From: Rhyzopertha dominica
Lineage: Eukaryota > Arthropoda > Insecta > Coleoptera > Bostrichidae
Assembly (NCBI GenBank): GCA_025024175.1
Contig: QCXZ01000003.1
Span: forward strand, 14,605,621-14,669,620
Direction of reading: 5' to 3'
Length of the DNA stretch: 64,000 nt
Position numbers and translations under genes: made by a program
Shown here: positions 8,501-34,321 of the stretch, one piece after another
Layout of the letters: each line of letters opens with the position of its first letter
Numbering within the stretch: position 1 is the first letter of the stretch
Notes under the pieces: generated by a model
Told to the model about the DNA's origin: nothing
Database searches by the model: none
Seen by the model: only the letters and a program-made list of their open reading frames with translations

Positions 8501-10000
8501 AGCTCGTATAATGATTATTCTCTAAGCTATCCTTTGTTTATTAAGTTCGTGTTGCTTTTGTTTAAGAAATATAATTTTTAGCCATGGTCGTGGTGGGTGC
8601 AGGTTTGAATCGCTCACTTATAAATAGTTGGCAGTTGTATGATTACAGAATAAACAAATACCTACGCACTCGGAGTAAACACCCTATATGATTTTAATAA
8701 ACCTTGCTTTACACTTCTGCTACAGAAGTTTCTTTTGTGCATCTGTTGTTGTGTTATCCATGTATACTTATTAAAGTATCAACATTTATTGTTCAAATCA
8801 CTGCAGTAAAATTGTATAATTACATACCAGCAAGCACCTTCAATTTTTTATCACCTTCGAAACGAAACAGAGGAAGTGTGTTTGTCAACTGGCGTAAGTG
8901 GATAAAGAAGAAAGAACGGTACTGCATGGTTGTAATCGGTTGTGTACATTATTTAGAAAGATTTTTTTTCTTCAAAATGTAAACTGCACATTCTATTCTC
9001 TCTATGAAGATTTTCACACATTCTATTAGGTCATCGCCACCAGACACTGTTGCTCACTGTTTAGCTCTGTATTAAATACCTACTAAGTCAAATTAATTAG
9101 AATGATCACTGCAACAACAAACCTTTGAATATTCTTTGGAAAGCTAAAAAACGTAGTTCTTCCAGCGTACCTACGTCTACTGTTGCACTGCATTACAGCA
9201 CAAACATGTACACTAATACTGCGATGCATTATTACATATTATAATAATCACCCAAAAGTGATGAAAACATACAAAACTTAAAATTAAAATACGTAATCTA
9301 CCAAACACGTCTGCAAATGATGGCGGTGAGCGGTTGACACTTGTCAGTCAGTGTGTCAGTAGGTATCCACCAAAGATGGCTGGACCTTAACCACACCCAG
9401 AGTGCTTATTCTGGTTGTTTTATTTTTCTGTGGTATGATTATGTCAATATATAGTTTGTGACATTTAGGTTTTATTTCAAAGGCATATGGATAAAATTTT
9501 TCACATATTCATTTATTAAAAATTGTACATACCTTGCCGTTGATATATCAGAAGTTAGCATTAGAGTTAACGAGAACAGCAGCTGTAGACTAGTGGTAAC
9601 AATACGGGTATTAATTTCTGACTTTGGTAACTTCATTAATTCTGAAACCAACTTAGGAATTGTGTAAAGTGCTTTTATTCGTAGAGGTTAAGGAGTGCAT
9701 ATTTTGTTGGTAATGAAGGGAGTTCACGTATGTACTTGCTTTATACTTACGTTAAGTTTCTTCTCGGTAATCCAGAAAAAGTAAAACTTTTTTTTTAATT
9801 CATCTGATGAGCTGCATGCGCCATATAATCCATTGTAGGAAGAACATTCAATATCAAATCTGAACTGAGTACACTGATTATGCAATGGTGCTCAAAATTT
9901 CGTCTGAAAATTCTTTAATTTCAATTTCAAATATTTTAGATTTTTTAGGTTTTTACAACTCAATCAGTTACCTTCCTAAAATGTCACAATTTTCATCCTC
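5529..10000. other. Intergenic, 4.5 kb without a supported gene
   Basis: AT-rich; ORFs are short and low in complexity. I looked for splice-bounded exons on both strands and support none. Confidence 0.5.
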
Positions 10001-12392: not shown

Positions 12393-15300
12393 GTAAGTAA
12401 CCTTTTCGGATTTAATAAGAATGTATGTGAGTGCTAACAAGGAAATCGTGTTGTTTTAGATTTGTTTGCTGTACTACACGTCTGTGGTGGTGTGTACATC
12501 AACAGAACCTCAAGTGTACGAAGACAGTAATGAAACATATATCGGAAGCATACGAAATGTTAGGCATCCTAAAAAAGATCCCATTGCTGCCAGCCCACCA
12601 GCTTTTGACTACCGAAGAGCTCAACAACAAGATCCACAAAGACTTCGATATTTCCATCAGCAACAAGTGGATGAAGAAAACCGTCTTAAAAATAGTACTA
12701 GTCGTTCATCAAGAGTAAGAAGAGAACGTGTAGCCAGCGGTCCTCAGAAAATAAATTCAAGTCCTCAGATTCGAGCAGATCGCAAAGGCGTTGTATTGGT
12801 TCCAGCGGAAAATGTTAAGGCTTTGCAAAATACAGAGTTTGGTTCCAAGATAATTAAACCGTTACTTCCCACTACTCAGTACGCCAAGAGACTCAAATCT
12901 AATACGTACCAGGTTGAAGAAGTATCAGATTTGGAGACACAAGGTACAGAGTCTGTAAAACGGAAAGATCTTTTAGGTGATATTAGACCAGTTTATTTAA
13001 ATCCGGAGCTATTAAAGAGAATGACCATGAGTGAATCTCAAAGGAAACCAGAAGATGAATTGAAAGCTTTAAACGACCTACTAGGAAAAAACCCGACCGT
13101 TCAGCTGCAAGGACTGAATCAATTATTAAGCAGCCTCTCAATAAGTAAAGCACTTTCTGCCATAGTGCAAGAACCACAACCTTTCCAAACAATAGCACCC
13201 GATATGAAGCCAGTCACCGAAGGCAGTGATGAACCAGCTCAAGCAATGCTACAAAACTTGGGATTAGAACAAAAGGGTATCTACCCCGTTTCCCCTACTC
13301 CCGAATCTCTGGCGCAAATTCAGCTTCAACTGGATGCTACTGCTAACGCTCACGCACACAAAGTTCTAGAGGAAGCCCAGCGACAGGCGCAAGCACACGT
13401 TGAACAGCAGCATAAGGCAATTGCAGCTGCCCAAGAGAAAGCCCGGAAGGCTGCAATGGAGAAAATACGGAAGCACAACGAGGCGATCTTCAGAGAACAG
13501 GGTAAGAAAAAGCCTCCTTCTAAGGAAGAACCGACACAGGAAGCCGCCGAAAGTCGTGTTCAGGCATATCATCACGTACAACAGGATCTTCCACATGCCG
13601 AAGCTCTCCAGGCCGGTACAGAATTTTTTCTGCAGCCGAACGACGGAGTCACTTACGTCCATGCGGAACCAGTAAGCGTTGCTGCCGAAGAAGAAGAATC
13701 CCATGTACAAGAGCATCGACTTGAGGACGAAGCTCTTCCACTACCTGTTCCTTCTGCCGAAACTTATGAGCATCACGTAGTAAACGACCCTCATGAACTG
13801 CAGAAGATAACAGAAGAAAGTATTAAGGCATATGGAGGCGAAGAAGAAGATGTAAGTAAGAATAAATGTAGAAGTTATGTAAGGGAGAAATTGAACATGT
13901 TTAAGCAGCAGTTCTGTAAACATTTAGGAAGTAAGCGCTCTTTAAGAAATCAAAGCAACAGAAACGGGAATTTTATATTAGAATTGAACTGTGCAAAAAT
14001 TGAAACCGCGAGAAATTTCTTTTCTAACAAGTTGAAAGAAATGTACAAAAGCGATCGCAAATCCTTCTTCTCCCTGTGTTTTTTTAACGAGTCCAGTACT
14101 AATCTACAACTAAATCATGATTACATATTTGAAAACAATTTGACCTCTTTCAACGAGCGTCTTGTAAGACAAAAGCGCAACACTAACAGTAACGCCACGC
14201 TTTCAAGCAGTGATTACTATTATTATTATGATTACGATTTTTCCAATGAAAACATCACGCTGGATGATTACTACCTAGATTATGGTTCCGACAGCACACC
14301 CGCTACTACCCATAACTATAATTTTGAAATTAACGCGTTAAATTCCAACAGTTCAGCTGATGACAGCATTGTTAGTCCTGTAGTGCAGTTACCTACAGCT
14401 GAAGCGCTTGTTCGTAAATATTCTCGACATAAATATCCGGGTAAAACAAAACATTCAAATAAAAAGCCTGCAAACCACTCTCCAGTTTATAAACCACTAA
14501 CTGTTCCTAAAGTAACTCTATCTGGCTATGATAACGGCACACCTGACATAAAAAATACAGGAAAGGGACCTGCTAACGTTATAGTCATTAATAACTCTAA
14601 CGACAATCATAACCATGGTTCAAATGTTAATCTGCATAACGGTCTTGCTGCGTACCATCCGAAGAGGCCATATAAAATAAGAAAGAAACCCAAACCGTTG
14701 CATTTGATAAAGTACAAGAAACCTAATTTAAAGAAGATTTTACGCATATCTAAAAAAGTAGATAATGTACTTAGTAAATTAGGTCATAATATTCAAGTAA
14801 AATAGGTTAGGTTCAGCAAATAATTATTGAAGTGCTATATTTTTCAGTATTAGACAGGGTATCTAGTTAAAGTATAAATTTTAGGGAATTTATAGTAGAC
14901 AGGCCGGTTAAAGTATTGTTAAAAAAATTCATGCCAAACACGTACACTTTGCAGATATTCGCAGAATTTTTTTATCGTAATAAATAAGTAGAAATCTCCG
15001 CAAGTAACGTGTTTATTAACTATATGTGTCATGCCACTCCTTGCAGATTTTAAATAGTACGCGGTTTTGTGGTTTTACATCGATTGAATTAGAGAAAATT
15101 TGCTGTTTAGCTTTTGTACGCTGCAAGCTGTATAATGACGAAACAGACAGTCTAGTCTCACAACATTTTCTTTATACATATATCACTATAATGTGACTTG
15201 TAACGAAATGTGACCCGTCTTCACATATTTATTCAACATGCATAATCTAACGATTTTCTGCTTTTACTTTCTACAATCTCATACGTTCACTCATACTTTT

Positions 15301-16656: not shown

Positions 16657-16689
16657 AAGGCGAGTAGGCCTCTGATGGGCGAGCTGGAC

Positions 16690-17122
16690 CAATTTGCATA
16701 TTAGCCCACTCGAGCGTAATAGCGATCAAAATTTTTTAATTTTTCGATTTTTTTTATGTGACGGGATGAGAAATATGATTTGAATTTGCGTGTTGATAAA
16801 TAGTAACTTATTATTAAAAAAAAAGATTTGAATTTGCATGTTGATAAATAGTATCTTATTAGATGCATTCATTTTCCCCGGATTAATGATTCAATATTGC
16901 TGCTATATTGAAAATAATACTTTTCGAGTTGTTTATTAAATTTTAGGGTACTAGATTGAGAGATCTGTATCACTCATTTGCATATTAGCCAGTAGGGGGC
17001 GTTTGAGGGCGCAAAATTACGCATTTGCATATTAGCCCAATCGAGCATGTGTGTAATTCGCGATCAAAAATTTTTTTAATTTTCGATTATTTTTGCTGAA
17101 TGTGACGGGATGAGAAATATGA
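16690..17122. repeat. Subterminal direct repeats of the palindrome
   Basis: ATTTGCATATTAGCC occurs at 16692, 16976 and 17023; the first and third copies are followed by CC(A)CTCGAGC / CAATCGAGC and then by a shared stretch (GATCAAAA, poly-T, TTTTCGATT, GTGACGGGATGAGAAATATGA). A second short direct repeat (TTGAATTTGCRTGTTGATAA) lies between them at about 16780 and 16828. The mirror copies are at about 33.86-34.29 kb. Repeats just inside the ends are where many transposases bind. Confidence 0.75.
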
Positions 17123-17497
17123 CGTTCATACGGTAATTAGCGAATTTATTAAGTGTCAATTATTTTTATTCGACTTTTTTGAATTTGGTATGATGGAATG
17201 AGATGTGAAATTGTGACTGACATTTTGTATTTTATAGCAGTATGTTTCTGACTGAGGCTTTTACGCCCTAGGGAGTTGGGATAATATCAGCAAAGGTGGG
17301 TTGCTGATGTGTAATTGATATGAAATATTTATTTGCTATTATCACATATTGCTATTGTATATGTATGCATGGCGATATGACCAATGTACTCTCCTATATG
17401 TAAACCGTTGTTATGATGGTGGGGGTTGGTACCGCGGTCCACGCTCTATATATAGGCAGCCCCCAGAACAGGGGTAGGCGGGATTTTTTTTACTATG

Positions 17498-17575
17498 CCG
17501 AATGCTGGGTTTGAACCGGGTACCTCCGGTATGACAATTCAGCACTTTACCGCTGCGCCAAACGCACCCTTCCCT
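17498..17575 (-). repeat. tRNA-derived SINE head in the left arm
   Basis: On the minus strand: A box TGGCGCAGCGGT and B box GGTTCAAACCC with tRNA-like spacing, but the anticodon and T stems do not pair well, so it is a SINE head rather than a working tRNA. It is followed on its own strand by an A-run and a GC-rich body reaching to about 17400. The same SINE is in the right arm on the plus strand. Confidence 0.7.
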
Positions 17576-17800
17576 AACGGCCGTTATTCTTGTCTATTTA
17601 AGAGTAGGGCCACTCATCAATTTATCATTTTTAAACTGAGATGGGATATTAGGTAAAACTTACCGCTAAGTCCGCTTAGGGAGCACATTTTGACAGTAAA
17701 TGGTTAATAATTACCTATGCCCATGTTTTTCTATGGTTTTATACTATTTTTTTGTCATATTTCATACAATGGATTTTCTTTATGGCCAGCTGGAGGGTTT

Positions 17801-18399
17801 CAATGATTATCAGTTATCTGGAATAAGAATAAACAAATTAATATTAAGAGTATTCATAGATTTAAACCGTCATTTTGTGGCAAAAACGTCAAATAACGGT
17901 TACAGCGCGACTTAATTGAGCTAAATAACTGTCATTTCACAACCTAGGCTAATCCACAGCAGGTTTGCGATTTCTTAAAAAGAAAATGCACTAAATAAGA
18001 ATCTAAAGCCACCAGCATGCAATGATTATCAGTTATCTGGAATAAGAATAAACAAATTAATATTAAGAGTATTCATGAATATGAACCGTGATTTTGTGGC
18101 AAAAACATCAAATAACGTTTACAGCACGGCTTAATTGAGCTAAATAATTTTCATTTCACAACCTAGGCTAATCCACAGCAGGTTTACGATTTCTTTAAAA
18201 ATGCACTAGATAAGAAATTAAAGCCACCAGCATGCAATGATTATCAGTTATCTGGGATGAGAATAAACAAATTAAGACTAAGAGTATTCCTAGATTTGAA
18301 TCGTGATTTTGTGGTAAAAACGTCAAATAACGGTTACAGCACGACTTAATTGAGCTAAATAACTGTCATTTCACAACCTAGGCTAAACCACAGCAGGTT
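17801..18399 (+). repeat. Three tandem copies of a 214-219-bp unit (left arm)
   Basis: Copies begin with CAATGATTATCAGTTATCTG at 17801, 18020 and 18234; the third stops at about 18399. Internal landmarks repeat in each (TTTTGTGGYAAAAACRTCAA, ACAACCTAGGCTAA, CACAGCAGGTT). A mirror array is at about 32579-33177. Confidence 0.9.
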
Positions 18400-18529
18400 C
18401 AGATAGCTAAGCAAAACGGTGAATATAAGTTTAAAATTACTAAACTAGCATAAATTTACGACTGTTAGTCAACTCTGTTTATATAAAAGAATGGATTTCA
18501 AGTGGTTGAAGTTAAATTAGAATAAATTA

Positions 18530-20060
18530 AATACTTGCTATTATGTCTACTGATAGTCATAGAAGGAACAAGCTGAAGACCAAAACACACACGGTAAGAA
18601 TGTGTTTAAGGCAGGTAAACTACTAAAAAAACACACTATGCTCGTACTTCGTTGTATAACGTGAATTTCCTTTTAACTAGCTTATGCGTACTAATTGTAT
18701 TAAATAATATTAAAATTGCCATCTTTTTAACTATATCGGTCCATCAAAAAGCATATGTTTCATGTCATTGTAATTAAATTGAAATAATTAATTCAGTTTT
18801 GTTTGTACTTTATTAAATATAACTCGCATGTCAGTTATCAATCTTGTAGGTTGAGAAGTTGCTTGTTACTGTCATCTGTCATAGCATACAGGATTTTTGA
18901 TTTAATAAATAATAAGCGACTACATGCTATTATACTAGCAAGAATCTACGATTTGCTAAAACCACCCTCGTACTCCATATGTCGTGATACGGCCTTATTA
19001 ACTTGTAGTCACTTCTTTTTATATAAAAGAATGGATTTCAAGCGATTGAAGTTTAATTAGAATAAACGAAATTGTGTTTTCACAGCATATGGAACGTTTT
19101 AAATATATACAAAAATTGGCGTGTTTTTCCATTATTTTTGCACTAGATTGTTTAAATTATGCCACTACATACTTTTTTTCTCTATAATGAACAATACTCG
19201 CTTAACTTACTAATAATGGAAAAATACTTGCTACTGTGTATGTTGATAATCATAAATGGAGCAAGCTGAAGCACGGTAAAAATTCATTTAAGACAACTAG
19301 ACTGCTGAAAAATATACTGTGTTCATACTTCGCTGTATATCGTAATTCCCCTCTTTACTAGATTCTGCGTGTTAATTATATTAAATAATGTTAACATTTT
19401 CAGCTTTTTAACTAATTCTGTTCATCTAAAGGCATATATTTCTTGAGATTGCAATTAAATTGAAATAATTTACTTAAATGAGTGCTGTTTGGACTTTATT
19501 AAATATAACTAGAATTTATTATATGTTGAGGAGTTGCTTATTACCATCGTCTATCATAGCATTCAGGGTAATTGACAAATAGAAAAATGACGCGATTTCC
19601 TTGTTTTTCTTCCTAACACTTGCTTATTTAAATTATGACACAGCATACGTTTTGTCTAATTAGCAGTACATATGTCTCTTAGTAATACCAATGCTGATAA
19701 ATGTATTTGATAATCATACAAGAAACAAATCGAGAGAGCAGAAGCAAACAGTCGATCAGGAACGATGAAAATGTGTTTAAAAGAACTAAACTACTCAAAA
19801 ATCTACTTCATGGTGTGTTGTAAATATAGTTTCATCAACTAGCAACCGGTATATTAATTGGCATCGACTAATGTTTGAGTTTAATCAATTCTCTTTCTGT
19901 ATTTTATGCTCACATAGCATATAGAGCGTTTGACATGGATAAAAAATATAACGCGATTTCTTTGCCATTTTCCCTTACTTATATTATTACCTGTTTCTTT
20001 CTATACGTAAACCGGTCTTAATGATGGTTGGAAAAATACATATTACTATTACATTTATGT
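18530..20060 (+). repeat. Degenerate tandem units of about 480-680 bp (left arm)
   Basis: Three diverged units share an order of landmarks: TACTTGCTA...GATARTCATA, GAAC/GAGCAAGCTGAAG, GTGTTTAA.RCA/RACTAAACTAC, TTCATACTTCG-like, TTAATT.TATTAAATAAT, GCAATTAAATTGAAATAATT, TGGACTTTATTAAATATAAC. Units start at about 18531, 19215 and 19690. TATAAAAGAATGGATTTCAA also occurs twice (18481 and 19022). The mirror is at about 30.91-32.45 kb. Confidence 0.7.
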
Positions 20061-20063
20061 AAT

Positions 20064-20752
20064 AAAGATGTTTGATAATCTACAACAAACAAATTGGAAA
20101 CCAGAAACGTTTGCCGAATAAGCATACCAATATTGGTTTCGAACAAGATTATGACCATAACCAGCAGAATCGGTTGGTTTAAAGACCGTAATCGAATACA
20201 CAGGGAGCTCTAGGGGTGAATTGGTAGCAGATAATCGTTATAAGGCATTTGCTTTATAAAGTATTACAATTTATTCATCAACAATACTCCTGTTTAGTAC
20301 GTAGTATACCCCAAATTCCTCCTATTTCAGCTGGAAAAAGGTTGAAATGGTAAAGATGTGGAGAAGTTAAGACCACTTGCGTTTTTGTTTCTTGAACATG
20401 AATGCATAAAGATGTTTGATAATCTACAACAAACAAATTGGAAACCAGAAACGTTTGCCGAATAAGCATACCAATATTGGTTTCGAACAAGATTATGACC
20501 ATAACCAGCAGAATCGGTTGGTTTAAAGACCGTAATCGAATACACAGGGAGCTCTAGGGGTGAATTGGTAGCAGATAATCGTTATAAGACATTTGCTTTA
20601 TAAAGTATTACAATTTATTCATCAACAATACTCCTGTTTAGTACGTAGTATACNCCAAATTCCTCCTATTACAGCTTGAAAAAGGTTGAAATGGTAAAGA
20701 TGTGGAGAAGTTAAGACCACTTGCATTTTTGTTTCTTGAACATGAATGCATT
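20064..20752 (+). repeat. Two tandem 344-bp copies (left arm)
   Basis: AAAGATGTTTGATAATCTAC begins at 20064 and again at 20408, and the units are almost identical to the base (both end CTTGAACATGAATGCAT). In the right arm the same pair occupies about 30222-30909 and is broken by the N gap. Confidence 0.9.
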
Positions 20753-23700
20753 ATCTGATCAAAACAGTCTTATGGAAATTATGCTAAGGATATAGATACT
20801 TAGAGCAAGTAAGTCTAACAAATTATAGGTAGCATTTCGAAATTTACAACATACCATAGCATTCAAGAAAAATCTGTTTCTCCAGTATATTCTTAAAAGA
20901 AGTAAGTAATGGATATTTGTCGAAAAATATTCAAACCTGTTTATATATTATCATTAAATTTATATTTCCAATATTGAAAGCACCCTAGTTAGCTCGCATT
21001 TCAAGGGCATTAAACTTCTTTTGTTAAACTGACATGAAAGCCTTGTAGTAATGTCGTGTAAACGTAATTTCTTGCTAACGTTTTGAAACTTACAACTCGT
21101 AATATGTAGCAATGCATTAAAGAAAAATCTGTTTCCACAGTAAATTTTTGAAAAAGGTAACGAGAAATATGAGGGATATTTGTCGAAAAGTATTCAAATA
21201 TTTAATATCCAAAGCCTCCTAGTTAGCTCGCATTCCANGGGGGCATTAAACTTATTTCATAAGTATTAATACACAGTTTAACGTCGAAGGAAATAAGAAA
21301 TTAATATTTTATTTTCTTGAAACTACCGAACTGGACAATATCGTGCCCATTTCATTTGCCATTCATTTCTGCGTAGTGATAGCGGGAGCTATGGGGAAGC
21401 TAAGATACGCATTGACATATATGCATACACACGAGCTTTACACAGGAGAAACATTAGACAACAAGTAGTTTTTATGTGCATTAGAAAACTTTTCATGCCT
21501 TTTCTCCCTAAAACTTACACATTTATGCATTATTTGTAATCCTATATATCCGTCACTGAACCCCATTGTAATAGTTAAAGCTAGAAAACGCTGTCAGTTA
21601 CCTATTGTAAGTCCAGCAGCATTAGTACTATTATTGTTCTAATATAAAAAATAAACGAAAATCAAATAACTACAATAATATATCGCACACTTTGATTTTT
21701 AGTGTATAAATTAATGCGATGCTTTCTTCTTATTTTATCAAATTATCATGTCTTGTTTTAACCAAATAATGGAGATCACTTTATAAATGTCTACAAATTC
21801 GTTAAACTTCTGACAAAAATTGTATCATTTAAAATCGATGGGCATGATCGAATTGTGTGCCATCTAGTTTGTTTTTTAAAGGCTAACCTCCAAATTTATG
21901 AAACAATAAATACATAAATAGACAAATTGGTGTCATCTTACAGGGAAAATGAGTGCATATATAAGAAAAAGGATCAAATATACCTGTATTAAATACTAAG
22001 AATTTGTACAAAAAGACATATATTTGGGGAGAAAAGCATAATTGACTGACAATTTTGTAAATTTACAGAAAATCTTGAATTGTATTTATAAATCTGCAAA
22101 TTTTCTGCTAATAAAAAGAGTGTAAATATGCGTTACATAATGAGTATAAGTTGTTATTATGGTTAGTGTTTCATACAGTTATTCAATTTCAGGATAACAT
22201 GTCTCATAAATATAAAAATGTTTACTATGGAAATCATACCTACAGAAAATATCCCCTTCACAGCTCACCTTACAGTATATTGCAGAGAGACCCATCTCGT
22301 AGGCACATTAGCCACATAAATTACTTCTCTTTGTAACCACCGTATATTACACATTGCTCCTAAAACACCAGGACAGACTGTCTTATTATCATGTAATGAT
22401 TTAAAATACATCAAGAATAACGTAAATTTAGAAGCATAAATAAGTGAAATTTTCTTTTCACACAGTTAATTGTAAAGATAAGTACAGAAGAGCATTGTCA
22501 TTGTAATTACACGGAAATCTTTAAATTATTACCCTTAACCGATAACATCAGATTTTACTTAGAAAAAAAACAACAACTTGTCCCTAGAGAAGTTAGCTTT
22601 AATGTATTTCGGAAAGATCACTACATGCTTGACTACCTACATTAGGTGTAAATGTTAACAATTCATTTAGGAATGTGAGCAAACTAGATCTGAACCTTTA
22701 TGTTCTTGCTACAGAATGGTATACTTTTTCTATGACATAGAAGCGTTATTGACATTTTTTCTGCAAATTAAAGCATTGAGGATTCACACCTGAGATCTAG
22801 ATTGACATAGCGACATGCACTTTATTAACCTTTAACTGCAGGTACAGGTGCATTTCATTCACTTAGAAAACTTCAGTACTGCCTCTGGTTGGTTATAATG
22901 TCAGATATCATTGGTTCACTCAGTAGGAATGTATTAATCTTAATTAATTTTAGGTCAAATATTTATTAATTCAGTGTGTAACATTTTAAAACCAGTTTTG
23001 CTTATATTTTTAAATGGATATTGTGTATGTTATGAAGTGAATGACGCACCTGAAAGATAACAAACAATCATGAATAAGGTAGTTAATTATCTCGAAACTT
23101 TAAAATTCTTAATAACCATGTAGTTTATATAGGACATAACACTGCGTTCAGTGCTTACCAGACTTTTTATTGGATAATAAGGAATAGTTGCTAAAGAACT
23201 CAACTGCATCATATGGCAATACTTTTTGAATGGATCTTAAAATAACTTTAACCTTGCATTTTAAAGAGGAACTTGAGACACTGCAAGATTAATATCACAA
23301 CTGACCCCAACAGATTTATCCCATGCACGACATGAAATTTGTAATCTAGGCGTTCCCTACAGGATAATCTTGTTAAGAAAAGCATTTGCTAGTAATAGCA
23401 TACGTATATTAATAAGTATCAGACTTTTTAACATAAGTACAACAATTTATGTGCCATTGTTTACTTATAGGTATTATTTTGAAATCATATGCCATTTTCT
23501 GATAGTTTACTCTTTCATTTTAGAATTTGGACTTATTATGCGAAAATGTATACCAGTGTACATGCCATTGAGCACTTGTAGTTATCTATAATCACATTTT
23601 TCTTTAGAATTAGCTTCACAAATTTATTATACCTTCTTCTCTGTTAGCTTGTGTCTATAGATTTAGTGTTATTTCTGCCATTGTAATATTTCTAAAAGGA

Positions 23701-25433
23701 GGTACTCACCACAAAAGAAGTGGAGTTCATATTCAACGAATATGTGCTCCTTCTCAACTACACCAAAATATAAATATTTTACTACGGTTAAGCAGGTTAA
23801 AGAGGAATAGTTAATCGAAAATTGAGACTTAATATGGAAAATATCGATCATTGTTATGAGATTGGTGTAATTTTATAGAAAAAGACCATACATAACCATC
23901 CTATATCGGGGCTCAAAATTTCATGAGACATTGCGATTCTATTGCCATGCAGAATATGTTATGTAGACTTCTTATGACTATCAAAGCTACTTTATCTAAA
24001 AGTATAAATACTCATGTTCGTTTATAGCCAACTAGTCAAATATATTGAGAAATCTTACACTTCCTCTGATAGGTATATTTTATTTTATTACGGAATATTC
24101 TTATTACGCCATTAAAACAATGTTAAAATTTGATTATTTAGTTGCATTTCATATGTGAAGTACTAGAGCTGCTTTGAGATTTGATGTTTTTATTTCTATA
24201 AAGCATGACAGCACCACATAGACTGATTTAATACACACAGAAATAGCCGGTTTTCTGAACCCCCCCACATCTTAGCCCACACCCTCTCATGTATAGAATT
24301 GGAGCTATACGGATCGAAGATTGTGATACAAACCAGGTTTTTTATACCTGGAACGCATTTTTCTAATAAAATGTTTTAGAAGATACATAGTAGGCAGTGC
24401 ATACCTTTACAAATCTTCTTTTACACTTCCTGTTAGGTTTAAGCAAGCCGCATTTGATATGATCCACAGGGTAACAAGCATTCATCTGCAATTTGTATAA
24501 AGAAGATGATCGTTTTAAATACATATATTTTTATGTGAAAACATAGACAGCAAAGCTGAATTTTACCTTAAACTAATACAAAAAAGTATTGCTTAAATGT
24601 CATAGCTGCGGATGCTCTGTGATACATGAATATGTGGAATTTGCTGAGTAAACTACTGCACAGTACTGGAGTGTGTGAATCCAAAGATCTATTTCCTCAA
24701 TATTTCCAATCATCAATGCATATTCCTTTATATGATCTTTTCTGGTCTCCTGTTTTCTGTGATGTCTGTTTATGCCCTAAAAAAGTATGATAATCGCGCT
24801 TTTCCTGCAAATTGAAACGATTTGTACACACATCGAACATTTAACTGGGATTTATACCATACTGAAATATTTTTATAATCAACAGGTGGTTTATATTCGG
24901 AGGTAGTTTACATGTTTATACTATTTCTCTTTAACTTCAAATACATTTTTTTAATACATATAGGCTAAGAGCATAGAAGTTGCAGTGTATCACACATCAA
25001 TTATTAAACTTGTAACGAAAATCGATGATATAGCCGTAATAAATCAAATAAGATCAGTTTTCGAAAGAGAAAGAAACCATTCGAGATTAGTCAAAACACG
25101 TTTGTTTTAAGTATATATAACACAGCTTCAGGGTAATTAAGAATTTTCTTAATATCAAAGCAATTTGTTTGAAAACATTGTTAATATCGTAAGGAGTTAA
25201 ATAAATGTTATGTATATTTGTGGTATGATTTCTTAACACTGTTATCATATCACCTCAATTTGGTATGCGCGCATTCTATAGTAACCTTACATTATTATTA
25301 TCTTTCACATTATTTCTTTTTACGAATGTTGAGGTACTTATTCATTTATATAACTTCATCTATAACTAATGACAATTTTTGAACTAAATCACTTCCAATG
25401 AACAACAACTGGGAGAAAACAAAGTAAGGCATA

Positions 25434-25530
25434 CACCTGGTCGCTGATTCTGTATATTCACAGTGATTTAGTCAAACTCCCAGATTGAGGAAGTTAATTG
25501 ATTTTGTTGAAAGAAATTCTATAGCTTGCA
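25434..25530. other. 97-bp unique spacer at the palindrome centre
   Basis: Runs from the end of the left arm (AAAGTAAGGCATA) to the start of the right arm (TATACCTTACTTT). The sequence is not itself palindromic and has no ORF. Its presence gives the two arms a defined orientation relative to each other. Confidence 0.85.
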
Positions 25531-28500
25531 TATACCTTACTTTGTTTTCTCCCAGTTGTTGTTCATTGGAAGTGATTTAGTTCAAAAATTGTCATTAGTT
25601 ATAGATGAAGTTATATAAATGAATAAGTACCTCAACATTCGTAAAAAGAAATAATGTGAAAGATAATAATAATGTAAGGTTACTATAGAATGCGCGCATA
25701 CCAAATTGAGGTGATATGATAACAGTGTTAAGAAATCATACCACAAATATACATAACATTTATTTAACTCCTTACGATATTAACAATGTTTTCAAACAAA
25801 TTGCTTTGATATTAAGAAAATTCTTAATTACCCAGAAGCTGTGTTATATATACTTAAAACAAACGTGTTTTGACTAATCTCGAATGGTTTCTTTCTCTTT
25901 CGAAAACTGATCTTATTTGATTTATTACGGCTACATCATCGATTTTCGTTACAAGTTTAATAATTGATGTGTGATACACTGCAACTTCTATGCTCTTAGC
26001 CTATATGTATTAAAAAAATGTATTTGAAGTTAAAGAGAAATAGTATAAACATGTAAACTACCTCCGAATATAAACCACCTGTTGATTATAAAAATATTTC
26101 AGTATGGTATAAATCCCAGTTAAATGTTCGATGTGTGTACAAATCGTTTCAATTTGCAGGAAAAGCGCGATTATCATACTTTTTTAGGGCATAAACAGAC
26201 ATCACAGAAAACAGGAGACCAGAAAAGATCATATAAAGGAATATGCATTGATGATTGGAAATATTGAGGAAATAGATCTTTGGATTCACACACTCCAGTA
26301 CTGTGCAGTAGTTTACTCAGCAAATTCCACATATTCATGTATCACAGAGCATCCGCAGCTATGACATTTAAGCAATACTTTTTTGTATTAGTTTAAGGTA
26401 AAATTCAGCTTTGCTGTCTATGTTTTCACATAAAAATATATGTATTTAAAACGATCATCTTCTTTATACAAATTGCAGATGAATGCTTGTTACCCTGTGG
26501 ATCATATCAAATGCGGCTTGCTTAAACCTAACAGGAAGTGTAAAAGAAGATTTGTAAAGGTATGCACTGCCTACTATGTATCTTCTAAAACATTTTATTA
26601 GAAAAATGCGTTCCAGGTATAAAAAACCTGGTTTGTATCACAATCTTCGATCCGTATAGCTCCAATTCTATACATGAGAGGGTGTGGGCTAAGATGTGGG
26701 GGGGTTCAGAAAACCGGCTATTTCTGTGTGTATTAAATCAGTCTATGTGGTGCTGTCATGCTTTATAGAAATAAAAACATCAAATCTCAAAGCAGCTCTA
26801 GTACTTCACATATGAAATGCAACTAAATAATCAAATTTTAACATTGTTTTAATGGCGTAATAAGAATATTCCGTAATAAAATAAAATATACCTATCAGAG
26901 GAAGTGTAAGATTTCTCAATATATTTGACTAGTTGGCTATAAACGAACATGAGTATTTATACTTTTAGATAAAGTAGCTTTGATAGTCATAAGAAGTCTA
27001 CATAACATATTCTGCATGGCAATAGAATCGCAATGTCTCATGAAATTTTGAGCCCCGATATAGGATGGTTATGTATGGTCTTTTTCTATAAAATTACACC
27101 AATCTCATAACAATGATCGATATTTTCCATATTAAGTCTCAATTTTCGATTAACTATTCCTCTTTAACCTGCTTAACCGTAGTAAAATATTTATATTTTG
27201 GTGTAGTTGAGAAGGAGCACATATTCGTTGAATATGAACTCCACTTCTTTTGTGGTGAGTACCTCCTTTTAGAAATATTACAATGGCAGAAATAACACTA
27301 AATCTATAGACACAAGCTAACAGAGAAGAAGGTATAATAAATTTGTGAAGCTAATTCTAAAGAAAAATGTGATTATAGATAACTACAAGTGCTCAATGGC
27401 ATGTACACTGGTATACATTTTCGCATAATAAGTCCAAATTCTAAAATGAAAGAGTAAACTATCAGAAAATGGCATATGATTTCAAAATAATACCTATAAG
27501 TAAACAATGGCACATAAATTGTTGTACTTATGTTAAAATGTCTGATACTTATTAATATACGTATGCTATTACTAGCAAATGCTTTTCTTAACAAGATTAT
27601 CCTGTAGGGAACGCCTAGATTACAAATTTCATGTCGTGCATGGGATAAATCTGTTGGGGTCAGTTGTGATATTAATCTTGCAGTGTCTCAAGTTCCTCTT
27701 TAAAATGCAAGGTTAAAGTTATTTTAAGATCCATTCAAAAAGTATTGCCATATGATGCAGTTGAGTTCTTTAGCAACTATTCCTTATTATCCAATAAAAA
27801 GTCTGGTAAGGCACTGAACGCAGTGTTATGTCCTATATAAACTACATGGTTATTAAGAATTTTAAAGTTTCGAGATAATTAACTACCTTATTCATGATTG
27901 TTGTTATCTTTCAGGTGCGTCATTCACTTCATAACATACACAATATCCATTTAAAAATATAAGCAAAACTGGTTTTAAAATGTTACACACTGAATTAATA
28001 AATATTTGACCTAAAATTAATTAAGATTAATACATTCCTACTGAGTGAACCAATGATATCTGACATTATAACCAACCAGAGGCAGTACTGAAGTTTTCTA
28101 AGTGAATGAAATGCACCTGTACCTGCAGTTAAAGGTTAATAAAGTGCATGTCGCTATGTCAATCTAATCTCAGGTGTGGAATCCTCAATGCTTTAATTTG
28201 CAGAAAAAATGTCAATAACGCTTCTATGTCATAGAAAAAGTATACCATTCTGTAGCAAGAACATAAAGGTTTCAGATCTAGTTTGCTCACATTCCTAAAT
28301 GAATTGTTAACATTTACACCTAATGTAGGTAGTCAAGCATTTACTGATCTTCCGAATACATTAAGCTAACTTCTCTAGGGACAAGTTGTTGTTTTTTTTC
28401 TAAGTAAAATCTGATGTTATCGGTTAAGGGTAATAATTTAAGATTTCCGTGTAATTACAATGACAATGCTCTTCTGTACTTATCTTTACAATTAACTGTG

Positions 28501-30671
28501 TGAAAAGAAAATTTCACTTATTTATGCTTCTAAATTTACGTTATTCTTGATGTATTTTAAATTCATTACATGATAATAAGACAGTCTTCCTGGTGTTTTA
28601 GGAGCAATGTGTAATATACGGTGGTTACAAAGAGAAGTTAATTTATGTGGCTAATGTGCCTACGAGATGGGTCTCTCTGCAATATACTGTAAGGTGAGCT
28701 GTGAAGGGGATATTTTCTGTAGGTATGATTTCCATAGTAAACATTTTTATATTTATGAGACATGTTATCCTGAAATTGAATAACTGTATGAAACACTAAC
28801 CATAATAACAACTTATACTCATTATGTAACGGCATATTTACACTCTTTTTATTAGCAGAAAATTTGCAGATTTATAAATACAATTCAAGATTTTCTGTAA
28901 ATTTACAAAATTGTCAGTCAATTATGCTTTTCTCCCCAAATATATGTCTTTTTGTACAAATTCTTAGTATTTAATAACAGGGTATATTTGATCCTTTTTC
29001 TTATATATGCACTCATTTTCCCTGTAAGATGACACCAATTTGTCTATTTATGTATTTATTGTTTCATAAATTTGGAGGTTAGCCTTTAAAAAACAAACTA
29101 GATGGCACACAATTCGATCATGCCCATCGATTTTAAATGATACAATTTTTGTCAGAAGTTTAACGAATTTGTAGACATTTATAAAGTGATCTCCATTATT
29201 TGGTTAAAAACAAGACATGATAATTTGATAAAATAAGAAGAAAGCATCGCATTAATTTATACACTAAAAATCAAAGTGTGCGATATATTATTGTAGTTAT
29301 TTGATTTTCGTTTATTTTTTATATTAGAACAATAATAGTACTAATGCTGCTGGACTTACAATAGGTAACTGACAGCGTTTTCTAGCTTTAACTATTACAA
29401 TGGGGTTCAGTGACGGATATATAGGATTACAAATAATGCATAAATGTGTAAGTTTTAGGGAGAAAAGGCATGAAAGGTTTTCTAATGCACATAAAAACTA
29501 CTTGTTGTCTAATGTTTCTCCTGTGTAAAGCTCGTGTGTATGCATATATGTCAATGCGTATCTTAGCTTCCCCATAGCTCCCGCTATCACTACGCAGAAA
29601 TGAATGGCAAATGAAATGGGCACGATATTGTCCAGTTCGGTAGTTTTCAAGAAATAAAATATTAATTCTTATTTCCTTCGACGTTAAACTTGTATTAATA
29701 CTTATGAAATAAGTTTAATGCCCCCCTGGAATGCGAGCTAACTAGGAGGCTTTGGATATTAAAATATTTGAATACTTTTCGACAAATATCCCTCATATTT
29801 CTCGTTACCTTTTTCAAAAATTTACTGTGGAAACAGATTTTTCTTTAATGCATTGCTACATATTACGAGTTGTAATTTCAAAACGTTAGCAAGAAATTAC
29901 GTTTACACGACATTACTACAAGGCTTTCATGTCAGTTTAACAAAAGAAGTTTAATGCCCTGAAATGCGAGCTAACTAGGGTGCTTTCCAATATTGCGAAA
30001 TATAAATTTTAATGGATAATTATATTAAACAGGTTTGAATATTTTTCGGACAAAATATCCATTAACTTACTGTCTTTTTAAGAATTACTGGGAGAAACAG
30101 ATTTTTTTGAATGCGTATGCGTATGTTGTAAATTCAGAAATGCTACCTATAATTTGTAGACTTACTTGCCTCTAAGTATCTATATCCTTAGCATAATTTC
30201 CATAAGACTGTTTTGATCAGATAATGCATTCATGTTCAAGAAACAAAAATGCAAGTGGTCTTAACTTCTCCACATCTTTACCATTTCAACCTTTTTCAAG
30301 CTGTAATAGGAGGAATTTGGGTATACTACGTACTAAACAGGAGTATTGTTGATGAATAAATTGTAATACTTTATAAAGCAAATGTCTTATAACGATTATC
30401 TGCTACCAATTCACCCCTAGAGCTCCCTGTGTATTCGATTACGGTCTTTAAACCAACCGATTCTGCTGGTTATGGTCATAATCTTGTTCGAAACCAATAT
30501 TGGTATGCTTATTCGGCAAACGTTTCTGGTTTCCAATTTGTTTGTTGTAGATTATCAACATCTTTATGCATTCATGTTCAAGAAACAAAAACGCAAGTGG
30601 TCTTAACTTCTCCACATCTTTACCATTTCAACCTTTTTCCAGCTGAAATAGGAGGAATTTGGGGTATACTA

Positions 30672-30771
30672 NNNNNNNNNNNNNNNNNNNNNNNNNNNNN
30701 NNNNNNNNNNNNNNNNNNNNNNNNNNNNNNNNNNNNNNNNNNNNNNNNNNNNNNNNNNNNNNNNNNNNNNN
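30672..30771. other. Assembly gap, 100 Ns
   Basis: It sits in the right-arm copy of the 344-bp tandem repeat. By alignment to the left arm (20201 pairs with 30772, 20302 with 30671) exactly 100 bases are missing, so the run of Ns equals the expected missing length. Any translated ORF crossing it has no meaning. Confidence 0.95.
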
Positions 30772-32578
30772 GTGTATTCGATTACGGTCTTTAAACCAAC
30801 CGATTCTGCTGGTTATGGTCATAATCTTGTCGAAACCAATATTGGTATGCTTATTCGGCAAACGTTTCTGGTTTCCAATTTGTTTGTTGTAGATTATCAA
30901 ACATCTTTATTACATAAATGTAATCAGTAATATGTATATTTTCCTAACCATCATTCAGACCGGTTTTACGTATAGAAAGAAACAGGTAATTAATATAAGT
31001 AAGGGAAATGGCAAAAGAAATCGCGTTATATTTTTATCCATGTCAAACGCCTCTATATGCTATGTGAGCATAAAATACAGAAAGAGAATTGATTAAACTC
31101 AAACATTAGTCGATGCCAATTAATATACGGTTGCTAGTTGATGAAACTATATTTACAACACACCATGAAGTAGATTTTTGAGTAGTTTAGTTCTTTTAAA
31201 ACACATTTTCATCGTTCCTGATCGACTGTTTGCTTACTGCTCTCTCGATTTGTTTCTTGTATGATTATCAAATACATTTATCAGCATTGGTATTACTAAG
31301 AGACATATGTACTGCTAATTAGACAAAACGTATGCTGTGTCATAATTTAAATAAGCAAGTGTTAGGAAGAAAAACAAGGAAATCGCGTCATTTTTCTATT
31401 TGTCAATTACCCTGAATGCTATGATAGACGATGGTAATAAGCAACTCCTCAACATATAATAAATTCTAGTTATATTTAATAAAGTCCAAACAGCACTCAT
31501 TTAAGTAAATTATTTCAATTTAATTGCAATCTCAAGAAATATATGCCTTTAGATGAACAGAATTAGTTAAAAAGCTGAAAATGTTAACATTATTTAATAT
31601 AATTAACACGCAGAATCTAGTAAAGAGGGGAATTACGATATACAGCGAAGTATGAACACAGTATATTTTTCAGCAGTCTAGTTGTCTTAAATGAATTTTT
31701 ACCGTGCTTCAGCTTGCTCCATTTATGATTATCAACATACACAGTAGCAAGTATTTTTCCATTATTAGTAAGTTAAGCGAGTATTGTTCATTATAGAGAA
31801 AAAAAGTATGTAGTGGCATAATTTAAACAATCTAGTGCAAAAATAATGGAAAAACACGCCAATTTTTGTATATATTTAAAACGTTCCATATGCTGTGAAA
31901 ACACAATTTCGTTTATTCTAATTAAACTTCAATCGCTTGAAATCCATTCTTTTATATAAAAAGAAGTGACTACAAGTTAATAAGGCCGTATCACGACATA
32001 TGGAGTACGAGGGTGGTTTTAGCAAATCGTAGATTCTTGCTAGTATAATAGCATGTAGTCGCTTATTATTTATTAAATCAAAAATCCTGTATGCTATGAC
32101 AGATGACAGTAACAAGCAACTTCTCAACCTACAAGATTGATAACTGACATGCGAGTTATATTTAATAAAGTACAAACAAAACTGAATTAATTATTTCAAT
32201 TTAATTACAATGACATGAAACATATGCTTTTTGATGGACCGATATAGTTAAAAAGATGGCAATTTTAATATTATTTAATACAATTAGTACGCATAAGCTA
32301 GTTAAAAGGAAATTCACGTTATACAACGAAGTACGAGCATAGTGTGTTTTTTTAGTAGTTTACCTGCCTTAAACACATTCTTACCGTGTGTGTTTTGGTC
32401 TTCAGCTTGTTCCTTCTATGACTATCAGTAGACATAATAGCAAGTATTTAATTTATTCTAATTTAACTTCAACCACTTGAAATCCATTCTTTTATATAAA
32501 CAGAGTTGACTAACAGTCGTAAATTTATGCTAGTTTAGTAATTTTAAACTTATATTCACCGTTTTGCTTAGCTATCTG

Positions 32579-33177
32579 AACCTGCTGTGGTTTAGCCTAG
32601 GTTGTGAAATGACAGTTATTTAGCTCAATTAAGTCGTGCTGTAACCGTTATTTGACGTTTTTACCACAAAATCACGATTCAAATCTAGGAATACTCTTAG
32701 TCTTAATTTGTTTATTCTCATCCCAGATAACTGATAATCATTGCATGCTGGTGGCTTTAATTTCTTATCTAGTGCATTTTTAAAGAAATCGTAAACCTGC
32801 TGTGGATTAGCCTAGGTTGTGAAATGAAAATTATTTAGCTCAATTAAGCCGTGCTGTAAACGTTATTTGATGTTTTTGCCACAAAATCACGGTTCATATT
32901 CATGAATACTCTTAATATTAATTTGTTTATTCTTATTCCAGATAACTGATAATCATTGCATGCTGGTGGCTTTAGATTCTTATTTAGTGCATTTTCTTTT
33001 TAAGAAATCGCAAACCTGCTGTGGATTAGCCTAGGTTGTGAAATGACAGTTATTTAGCTCAATTAAGTCGCGCTGTAACCGTTATTTGACGTTTTTGCCA
33101 CAAAATGACGGTTTAAATCTATGAATACTCTTAATATTAATTTGTTTATTCTTATTCCAGATAACTGATAATCATTG
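32579..33177 (-). repeat. Mirror of the 214-219-bp tandem array (right arm)
   Basis: Same three copies in reverse complement, with the same copy number and the same differences between copies as in the left arm. Confidence 0.88.
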
Positions 33178-33404
33178 AAACCCTCCAGCTGGCCATAAAG
33201 AAAATCCATTGTATGAAATATGACAAAAAAATAGTATAAAACCATAGAAAAACATGGGCATAGGTAATTATTAACCATTTACTGTCAAAATGTGCTCCCT
33301 AAGCGGACTTAGCGGTAAGTTTTACCTAATATCCCATCTCAGTTTAAAAATGATAAATTGATGAGTGGCCCTACTCTTAAATAGACAAGAATAACGGCCG
33401 TTAG

Positions 33405-33482
33405 GGAAGGGTGCGTTTGGCGCAGCGGTAAAGTGCTGAATTGTCATACCGGAGGTACCCGGTTCAAACCCAGCATTCGGCA
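33405..33482 (+). repeat. tRNA-derived SINE head in the right arm
   Basis: Mirror copy of the 17.5-kb SINE at the exactly paired position: TGGCGCAGCGGT then GGTTCAAACCC, then ATAGTAAAAAAAATCCCGCC and a GC-rich body. Confidence 0.7.
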
Positions 33483-34321
33483 TAGTAAAAAAAATCCCGC
33501 CTACCCCTGTTCTGGGGGCTGCCTATATATAGAGCGTGGACCGCGGTACCAACCCCCACCATCATAACAACGGTTTACATATAGGAGAGTACATTGGTCA
33601 TATCGCCATGCATACATATACAATAGCAATATGTGATAATAGCAAATAAATATTTCATATCAATTACACATCAGCAACCCACCTTTGCTGATATTATCCC
33701 AACTCCCTAGGGCGTAAAAGCCTCAGTCAGAAACATACTGCTATAAAATACAAAATGTCAGTCACAATTTCACATCTCATTCCATCATACCAAATTCAAA
33801 AAAGTCGAATAAAAATAATTGACACTTAATAAATTCGCTAATTACCGTATGAACGTCATATTTCTCATCCCGTCACATTCAGCAAAAATAATCGAAAATT
33901 AAAAAAATTTTTGATCGCGAATTACACACATGCTCGATTGGGCTAATATGCAAATGCGTAATTTTGCGCCCTCAAACGCCCCCTACTGGCTAATATGCAA
34001 ATGAGTGATACAGATCTCTCAATCTAGTACCCTAAAATTTAATAAACAACTCGAAAAGTATTATTTTCAATATAGCAGCAATATTGAATCATTAATCCGG
34101 GGAAAATGAATGCATCTAATAAGATACTATTTATCAACATGCAAATTCAAATCTTTTTTTTTAATAATAAGTTACTATTTATCAACACGCAAATTCAAAT
34201 CATATTTCTCATCCCGTCACATAAAAAAAATCGAAAAATTAAAAAATTTTGATCGCTATTACGCTCGAGTGGGCTAATATGCAAATTGGTCCAGCTCGCC
34301 CATCAGAGGCCTACTAAGGCG

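What the first reader, a model, noticed from the sequence alone, without database searches (positions are those of the whole stretch)
16657..34321. 17.65-kb palindrome with sharp ends and a 6-bp direct repeat on both sides: a giant foldback-type mobile element
Seen: two 8.8-kb arms in inverted orientation, a 97-bp spacer, identical ends (AGTAGGCCTCTGATGGGCGA inward from both sides), and AAGGCG immediately outside both ends in direct orientation. A plain inverted segmental duplication or a fold-back read would not give a direct repeat exactly at both outer borders. Known: foldback elements have long inverted repeats with internal tandem arrays; Maverick/Polintons make 6-bp duplications. Inferred: a non-autonomous element of unusual arm length with no enzyme of its own, moved in trans by an unknown transposase or integrase.
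Basis: partly seen in the sequence, partly recalled or inferred. Interest (0 to 1): 0.92.

Follow-up and report, generated by a model that had tools for sequence, protein, structure and literature searches.

The report
Giant palindromic parasite of a Polinton
The window holds a mobile DNA element made of two mirror-image 8.8-kb halves with no recognisable genes of its own, which carries the same ends as a virus-like Polinton transposon in the same genome and is most likely moved by that transposon's enzymes.

Summary
The element is 16663-34315, with 8.8-kb arms, a 97-bp spacer and AAGGCG on both sides. It belongs to a multi-copy family in a 479-Mb eukaryote genome. All 24 copies of the family with both ends read carry an exact, different 6-bp target duplication and AGTAG ends. 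Arms are nearly identical within a copy (0.03-0.6% substitutions, seven copies) but copies differ by up to 9% over the terminal 1.1 kb. A/B subfamily mosaics switch at matching places in both arms, so the arms are kept alike as a pair. The window's left arm has no Pfam match in six frames.

The unknown enzyme source now has a strong candidate. A coding Polinton/Maverick family in the same genome (pol B, integrase with chromodomain, packaging ATPase, double-jelly-roll capsid) has the same terminal sequence and 6-bp duplications (6 of 6). Of 53 end pairs, 17 hold a capsid match; 36 do not, and 30 of those show arm sequence inverted at both ends.

Best reading: a non-autonomous, fully palindromic satellite of a Polinton, moved in trans, its arms re-matched during replication as a hairpin (inferred). 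New variant of a known kind. No empty site was found; mobilisation is inferred.

The parts
16657..16662 (.). left 6-bp target-site duplication AAGGCG
34316..34321 (.). right 6-bp target-site duplication AAGGCG
16663..34315 (.). whole palindromic element, 17,653 bp including 100 N
16663..25433 (+). left arm
25434..25530 (.). 97-bp central spacer (loop); sequence at the centre resembles that of copy c4, which has no 100-N gap
25531..34315 (-). right arm (inverted copy)
16663..16884 (+). terminal region shared with the inverted repeats of the coding Polinton C64:43056366-43074462 (arm 19-222 matches its right end at 86%; arm 19-143 matches its left end at 67%; B-type palindromes match its left end at 98%)
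34094..34315 (-). the same shared terminal region at the right end
   Evidence: mirror of the left arm
16692..16706 (+). terminal motif ATTTGCATATTAGCC; further copies start at 16976 and 17023, mirrored at 33941, 33988 and 34272
   Evidence: 6 matches with up to 2 mismatches allowed, 0.35 expected
16991..17037 (+). internal end-like unit AGTAGGGGGCG...ATTTGCATATTAGCC, mirrored at 33941-33987
17801..18399 (+). 215-bp tandem repeat, 2.8 copies; mirrored at 32579-33177
20062..20751 (+). 344-bp tandem repeat, 2.0 copies (its mirror is cut by the assembly gap)
30672..30771 (.). 100-N assembly gap inside the right arm

Best explanation
The element is a non-autonomous satellite of a Polinton/Maverick family in the same genome. 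It supplies only the terminal sequences in cis. The Polinton's integrase and, probably, its protein-primed DNA polymerase act on those ends in trans and insert the element with a 6-bp duplication. SHOWN: copies, ends, duplications, a coding family with the same ends, no recognisable gene in the arm, arms alike within each copy, mirrored mosaics. INFERRED: trans mobilisation, and the way the arms stay alike. The proposed way (about 0.5 likely on its own): a displaced single strand folds into one 8.8-kb hairpin, the whole-molecule version of the panhandle formed by short terminal repeats, and mismatches between the paired arms are repaired, so one arm's changes, including new terminal cassettes, are written into both arms before insertion.
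For: Exact 6-bp duplications, different in each copy: 24 of 24 palindrome-family copies and 6 of 6 coding Polintons. The Polinton C64:43056366-43074462 encodes pol B (7.2e-10), rve integrase (7.2e-15), chromodomain (2.1e-6), Pox_A32 ATPase (4.5e-8) and DJR capsid (2e-83). Its two ends begin with the same 44 bp as palindrome c3. Its left end is 98% identical to B-type arms over 138 columns, its right end 88% to c3 over 229 columns. Nine intact capsid genes of at least 99% identity all lie 1.04-1.05 kb from such an end (positions). The terminal cassette is identical at both ends in 43 of 53 pairs, against a shuffled mean of 1.66 and maximum of 8. In six coding copies the first difference between the two ends comes after 44-114 bp, and in five of them the alignable repeat is 152-326 bp long at 82-97%; five palindromic pairs are 99.6-100% alike over 681-751 columns. 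Mosaics c5, c9, c10 and c15 switch subfamily at mirrored points, at 500-bp resolution. A 0.96-kb hAT-like insert sits in one arm only of c9, so equalising did not follow that insertion.
Against: No mobilisation was observed, and no empty site was found for the window copy. Beyond the terminal 150-235 bp and the internal end-like unit, the arms compared (five copies) match nothing in the C64 Polinton but one stretch of about 40 bp, so the origin of most of each arm is unexplained. In the C64 copy used to identify the family, pol B is broken into several frames and there is a 100-N gap. PF03175 matches fall inside only 2 of the 17 capsid-bearing pairs (C64:43065062, 1e-6, and C136:38138462, 6.5e-9), so an intact polymerase was not shown for this family. 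Of 53 pairs, 4 have clearly different cassettes at their two ends; 3 of these hold a damaged or partial capsid match. The length of identical prefix overlaps between coding (44-114 bp) and palindromic pairs (82 to at least 300 bp). For the closest pairs of copies, within-copy arm difference is no smaller than between-copy difference. Arm equality deep inside gapped copies rests partly on the assembler: of the ten copies seen over most of their length, including the window's, only c4 and c9 have no 100-N gap.
Confidence: 0.8

Rival explanations
1. The element is a Polinton-mobilised derivative, but its arms are kept alike after insertion by ordinary arm-to-arm gene conversion in the chromosome, as in sex-chromosome palindromes, and not during transposition.
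For: Would also give arms alike within a copy and mirrored mosaics.
Against: The hAT-like insert in c9 is not equalised. Within-copy divergence spreads from 0.03% to 0.59% in seven copies, as expected for differing ages. In coding copies perfect identity is confined to the outermost 44-114 bp, which points to a process that starts at the terminus.
Confidence: 0.25
2. It is moved by an unrelated cut-and-paste transposase (foldback, MULE, hAT or P type), and the likeness to Polinton ends is accidental.
For: Long inverted arms with tandem arrays resemble foldback elements in shape.
Against: The duplication is 6 bp in 24 of 24; copy c3 shares 44 exact terminal bp with a coding Polinton whose family itself shows 6-bp duplications.
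Confidence: 0.04
3. Assembly artefact: fold-back chimeric reads or an assembler that walked one arm twice.
For: Eight of the ten copies seen over most of their length hold a 100-N gap, and c3, c6 and c8 show gap-edge overlaps or a lodged foreign stretch.
Against: Unique flanks with matching 6-mers at both outer borders in 24 of 24 copies; c4 and c9 cross the centre without a 100-N gap; copies differ from each other by up to 9% over the terminal 1.1 kb while sharing the arm out to the centre.
Confidence: 0.02
4. A decayed Polinton whose genes were deleted and whose remnant happened to be duplicated head to head.
For: Shared ends and similar total length (16.8 kb in c4 against 16.7-25.9 kb for eight pairs with an intact capsid).
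Against: The window's left arm shows no Pfam family in six frames, five arms show no DNA match to the Polinton interior beyond about 40 bp, and the palindrome centre is shared by several copies, so it propagates as a palindrome.
Confidence: 0.05

Closest known systems
Polinton/Maverick elements (polintoviruses)
   Same: 6-bp target duplications; AGT-type ends (vertebrate Mavericks: 5'-(AGT)2//(ACT)2-3', PMC8097293 section 7); total length within theirs (12.7-24.6 kb, mean 16.9 kb, same section); copy c3 shares 44 terminal bp exactly with a coding Polinton here
   Different: No recognisable gene; inverted repeats span the entire element (8.8 kb against 46-1,447 bp in vertebrate Mavericks); sixth base G or A, not T
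Foldback elements (FB, Galileo and others; recalled)
   Same: Long inverted arms with internal tandem arrays, little unique centre
   Different: Duplication of 6 bp, not 9 or 7 (recalled); Polinton ends; arms not tandem-repeated over most of 8.8 kb
Defective palindromic genomes of adenoviruses and other protein-primed replicons (recalled, no call; one search found no paper)
   Same: Head-to-head duplication of one genome end, replicated by a helper
   Different: Chromosomally integrated with target duplications; the inner arms are not helper sequence

Membership tests
Polinton/Maverick | 6-bp target-site duplication | tested here: met
   24 of 24 palindrome-family copies, 6 of 6 coding relatives
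Polinton/Maverick | AG/AGT-type terminal motif within inverted repeats | tested here: met
   AGTAG at all ends read; in c3 the same 44 bp as a coding Polinton; two other Polinton families here end AGTAGT, read at one end each
Polinton/Maverick | encodes protein-primed pol B, integrase, ATPase, capsid | tested here: not met
   0 Pfam families at E 0.1 in six frames of the window's left arm. It is therefore filed as a non-autonomous derivative, not as a Polinton
Non-autonomous partner of a Polinton | cis ends shared with a coding family in the same genome | tested here: met
Non-autonomous partner of a Polinton | mobilised in trans by that family's enzymes | not testable with these tools
   inferred from shared ends and equal duplication length
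Foldback element | long inverted repeats, small centre | tested here: met
Foldback element | 9-bp (FB) or 7-bp (Galileo) duplication (lengths recalled) | tested here: not met
   6 bp in 24 of 24

The most novel reading that the evidence does not exclude
These palindromes are satellites of a capsid-forming Polinton virus, comparable to defective-interfering genomes. They replicate as giant self-complementary hairpins that re-synchronise both arms each cycle, and they keep a helper-like length of about 17 kb because they are packaged in the helper's capsid. They would be genome-resident, gene-less parasites of a virus-like element.
Probability: 0.3. Interest if true: 0.9.

Novelty: new variant of a known kind. 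Interest (0 to 1): 0.77.

Why it matters
Near-perfect palindromes of this size with a short spacer are expected to be unstable in eukaryotes (general knowledge, not tested here), yet here is a family of some thirty copies that spreads as palindromes. If they use Polinton machinery, they offer a natural readout of how a Polinton replicates its ends, and they show that Polintons can carry gene-less parasites. The mirrored mosaics give a sequence-only test of hairpin or panhandle repair.

Tried and rejected
Rfam and tRNA scans of the element: nothing. Exact 18-mer of the end in viral contigs: 1 hit, L052, judged chance because the arm has no further match to it at 1e-3. The apparent span of 6.8-67 kb among copies was taken for true size variation and then rejected for the copies looked at: three stretches inside c6 (67.5 kb) show unrelated sequence up to a 100-N gap and arm sequence after it, and c3 and c8 repeat arm sequence on either side of a gap. 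The first two Polinton families examined (L053-L058) share the palindromes' end only in AGTAG; the sharing family was found through. In one search the script placed the right end of c10 three bases off and printed unequal repeats; reading by eye gives ACTGAA on both sides, and one search places the end there too. Empty-site search for the window copy found only its own two flanks. Host identity: the ORF at 12466-14805 has only two unnamed relatives and no Pfam match; the host was not identified. Papers: ten searches (three of them gave no paper) in an open-licence library. From the titles and abstract starts listed, none is about a palindromic non-autonomous Polinton; this does not show that none is in print.
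Full report
OBSERVATION. The palindrome is real in the assembly. The arms are 16663-25433 and 25531-34315 with a 97-bp spacer, and AAGGCG stands directly outside both ends. A 100-N gap lies in the right arm (30672-30771). Most arm differences are indels; 11 are mismatches.

A FAMILY. The first 600 bp of the arm match 42 scored places in the 479-Mb genome, all but two in facing pairs (40 of 117 candidates scored). Nine copies besides the window's were fetched over most of their length (c2-c5, c7-c10, c15), and c19 in part. In the window copy and those nine the arms are inverted repeats up to the centre or up to an assembly gap. c19 looks like an internal deletion, with left arm position 1707 next to right arm position 7659. 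c3, c4 and c8 match the window arm out to position 8827, c9 to 8805, c10 and c15 to 8540, c7 to 7660; c2 and c5 stop at gaps; identities of the longer pieces run from 73% to 99%. The central sequence of c4 resembles that of the window by eye. The palindrome is therefore inherited and not formed anew at each site.

ENDS. All ends read begin AGTAG. Exact 6-bp direct repeats, different from copy to copy, flank 9 of 9 copies with both ends (c10 read by eye), 10 of 10 (two further copies had one end only and were left out), and 5 of 5: 24 of 24 in all. The pattern AGTAGN{22,29}ATTTGCATATTAGCC has 148 genome matches and 0 in the reversed control. Of these, 147 are listed; 24 are internal end-like units, which I dropped by their sequence, leaving 123 ends. 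They form 53 facing pairs less than 200 kb apart, with 17 ends unpaired. The variable 23-26-base cassette behind AGTAG and the sixth base is identical at both ends in 43 of 53 pairs, differs by one base in 6 and by more in 4; shuffling gives a mean of 1.66 and a maximum of 8 in 10,000. There are 54 different cassettes.

ARMS KEPT ALIKE. In the terminal 1.1 kb, left and right arms of one copy differ at 0-3 of about 1,120 sites in the eight copies with both arms compared, while copies differ by up to 9%. In the tree (19 rows; the left arm of c9 was left out because of its insert) the two arms of each copy group together, except that c7 and c8, which are practically identical there, are intermixed. 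Over about 6 kb, within-copy differences are 0.03-0.59% in seven copies; for the closest pairs of copies this is no smaller than the difference between copies (c7 and c8 0.04%; c1 and c2 0.54-0.75% against 0.12% and 0.59% within). Copies c5, c9, c10 and c15 are mosaics of subfamilies A and B, and the switches lie at the same arm positions on both sides at the 500-bp resolution used; the bin over the tandem array (1000-1500) differs between the arms of c5 and of c15. After insertion, arms can differ: c9 has a 0.96-kb insert in the left arm only, with ends CAGTGGCGG...CCGCCACTG and an 8-bp duplication, which is hAT-like by recalled features.

NO RECOGNISED GENES. Six frames of the window's left arm, with X at stops, give 0 Pfam families at E 0.1. 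Rfam and tRNA scans of the element are empty. Other copies were not scanned for proteins.

THE HELPER. Pol B family PF03175 has 64 matches in the genome, 18 of them in an open frame of at least 1,000 codons without a stop in the match. Two such Polinton families end AGTAGT, judged from where two copies stop matching at one end. A third family shares far more. C64:43056366-43074462 (18,097 bp, duplication ATTATA on both sides) has as its first 44 bases at each end exactly those of palindrome c3. Of ten open frames searched one by one, six match pol B, rve integrase, chromodomain, Pox_A32 ATPase, DJR capsid and a RING finger, and four match nothing at E 0.01. Its left end is 98% identical to B-type palindromes over 138 columns; its right end is 88% identical to A-type c3 over 229 columns. 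It is not palindromic: its two halves share only about 179 columns at 72%. Its capsid finds nine intact copies of at least 99% identity, and 9 of 9 lie 1.04-1.05 kb inside an AGTAG...ATTTGC end (positions). Five more coding pairs have exact 6-bp duplications. In those five the two ends are identical for 47-114 bp before the first difference (44 bp in the C64 copy) and alignable for 152-326 bp at 82-97%, while five palindromic pairs are 99.6-100% alike over the 681-751 columns aligned, with the first difference after 82 bp or later.

COUNTS. Of 53 pairs, 17 contain a capsid match and 36 do not (checked by eye against all 104 rows, which scored 101 of 276 candidates, so a capsid remnant in some of the 36 is not excluded). 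Of the 36, 30 show palindrome-arm sequence inverted at both ends (tallied by hand). The other six are C44:1267716, C53:24580415, C86:17435541, C136:12002560, C136:24274389 (one side seen) and C136:65372227. No capsid pair appears in the arm lists, which are lower bounds (40 of 117 and 40 of 72 candidates scored). PF03175 matches fall in 2 of the 17 capsid pairs.

MECHANISM. Shared cis ends, the same duplication length and lack of recognisable genes make trans mobilisation by the Polinton integrase the plainest account. [quoted passage not shown] If the strand displaced in such replication folds back, a Polinton pairs only over its short repeats, whereas the palindrome pairs over its whole length. 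Repair of mismatches in that duplex would explain in one step why coding copies are perfectly alike only at the outermost 44-114 bp, why palindromes are alike throughout, why cassettes change at both ends together, and why mosaics are mirrored. This step is inferred. Conversion between arms in the chromosome remains a rival (0.25).

KNOWN. Intact vertebrate Mavericks have 6-bp duplications, commonly (AGT)2 ends, 46-1,447-bp repeats and a mean length of 16,862 bp (PMC8097293, passages and section 7). The length of the palindromes without a 100-N gap (16,840 bp in c4; 17,742 bp in c9 with its insert) is close to that mean, and lies at the lower end of the 16.7-25.9 kb of the eight pairs here with an intact capsid, whose gaps were mostly not checked. 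A packaging limit is suggested at most.

LIMITS. No raw reads, no empty site, no expression data.

Noticed in passing
L053-L058 (C41:37219000, C41:30879600, C41:37227000, C136:65955100, C136:19930000, C136:46950800): Two further Polinton families with long open pol B frames end AGTAGTTATACC and AGTAGTATTACT or AGTAGTATAGGT (one end read each); whether they too have palindromic satellites was not looked at.
   Followed up: partly
window 16991-17037 and C1:10154330-10154423: A second end-like unit (AGTAG...ATTTGCATATTAGCC) lies inside the arm; in some copies it directly abuts the terminal unit, as if ends were added in tandem.
   Followed up: partly
L022:1241-2203: hAT-like 0.96-kb insert with an 8-bp duplication in the left arm only of copy c9.
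   Followed up: partly
C137:3333001-3381175: Three stretches read inside copy c6 show sequence unrelated to the arm up to a 100-N gap at 3381076-3381175: probable mis-scaffolding of the assembly.
   Followed up: partly
L059:1277-1675 (-): RING-finger open frame near one end of the Polinton, possibly an accessory gene.
   Followed up: no
window 12466-14805 (+): 779-codon open frame without a Pfam match; two unnamed relatives at 38-48% identity.
   Followed up: partly
genome-wide, cassettes: Terminal cassettes look modular (several versions of each third recombined in many combinations), while both ends of a copy mostly keep the same combination.
   Followed up: no
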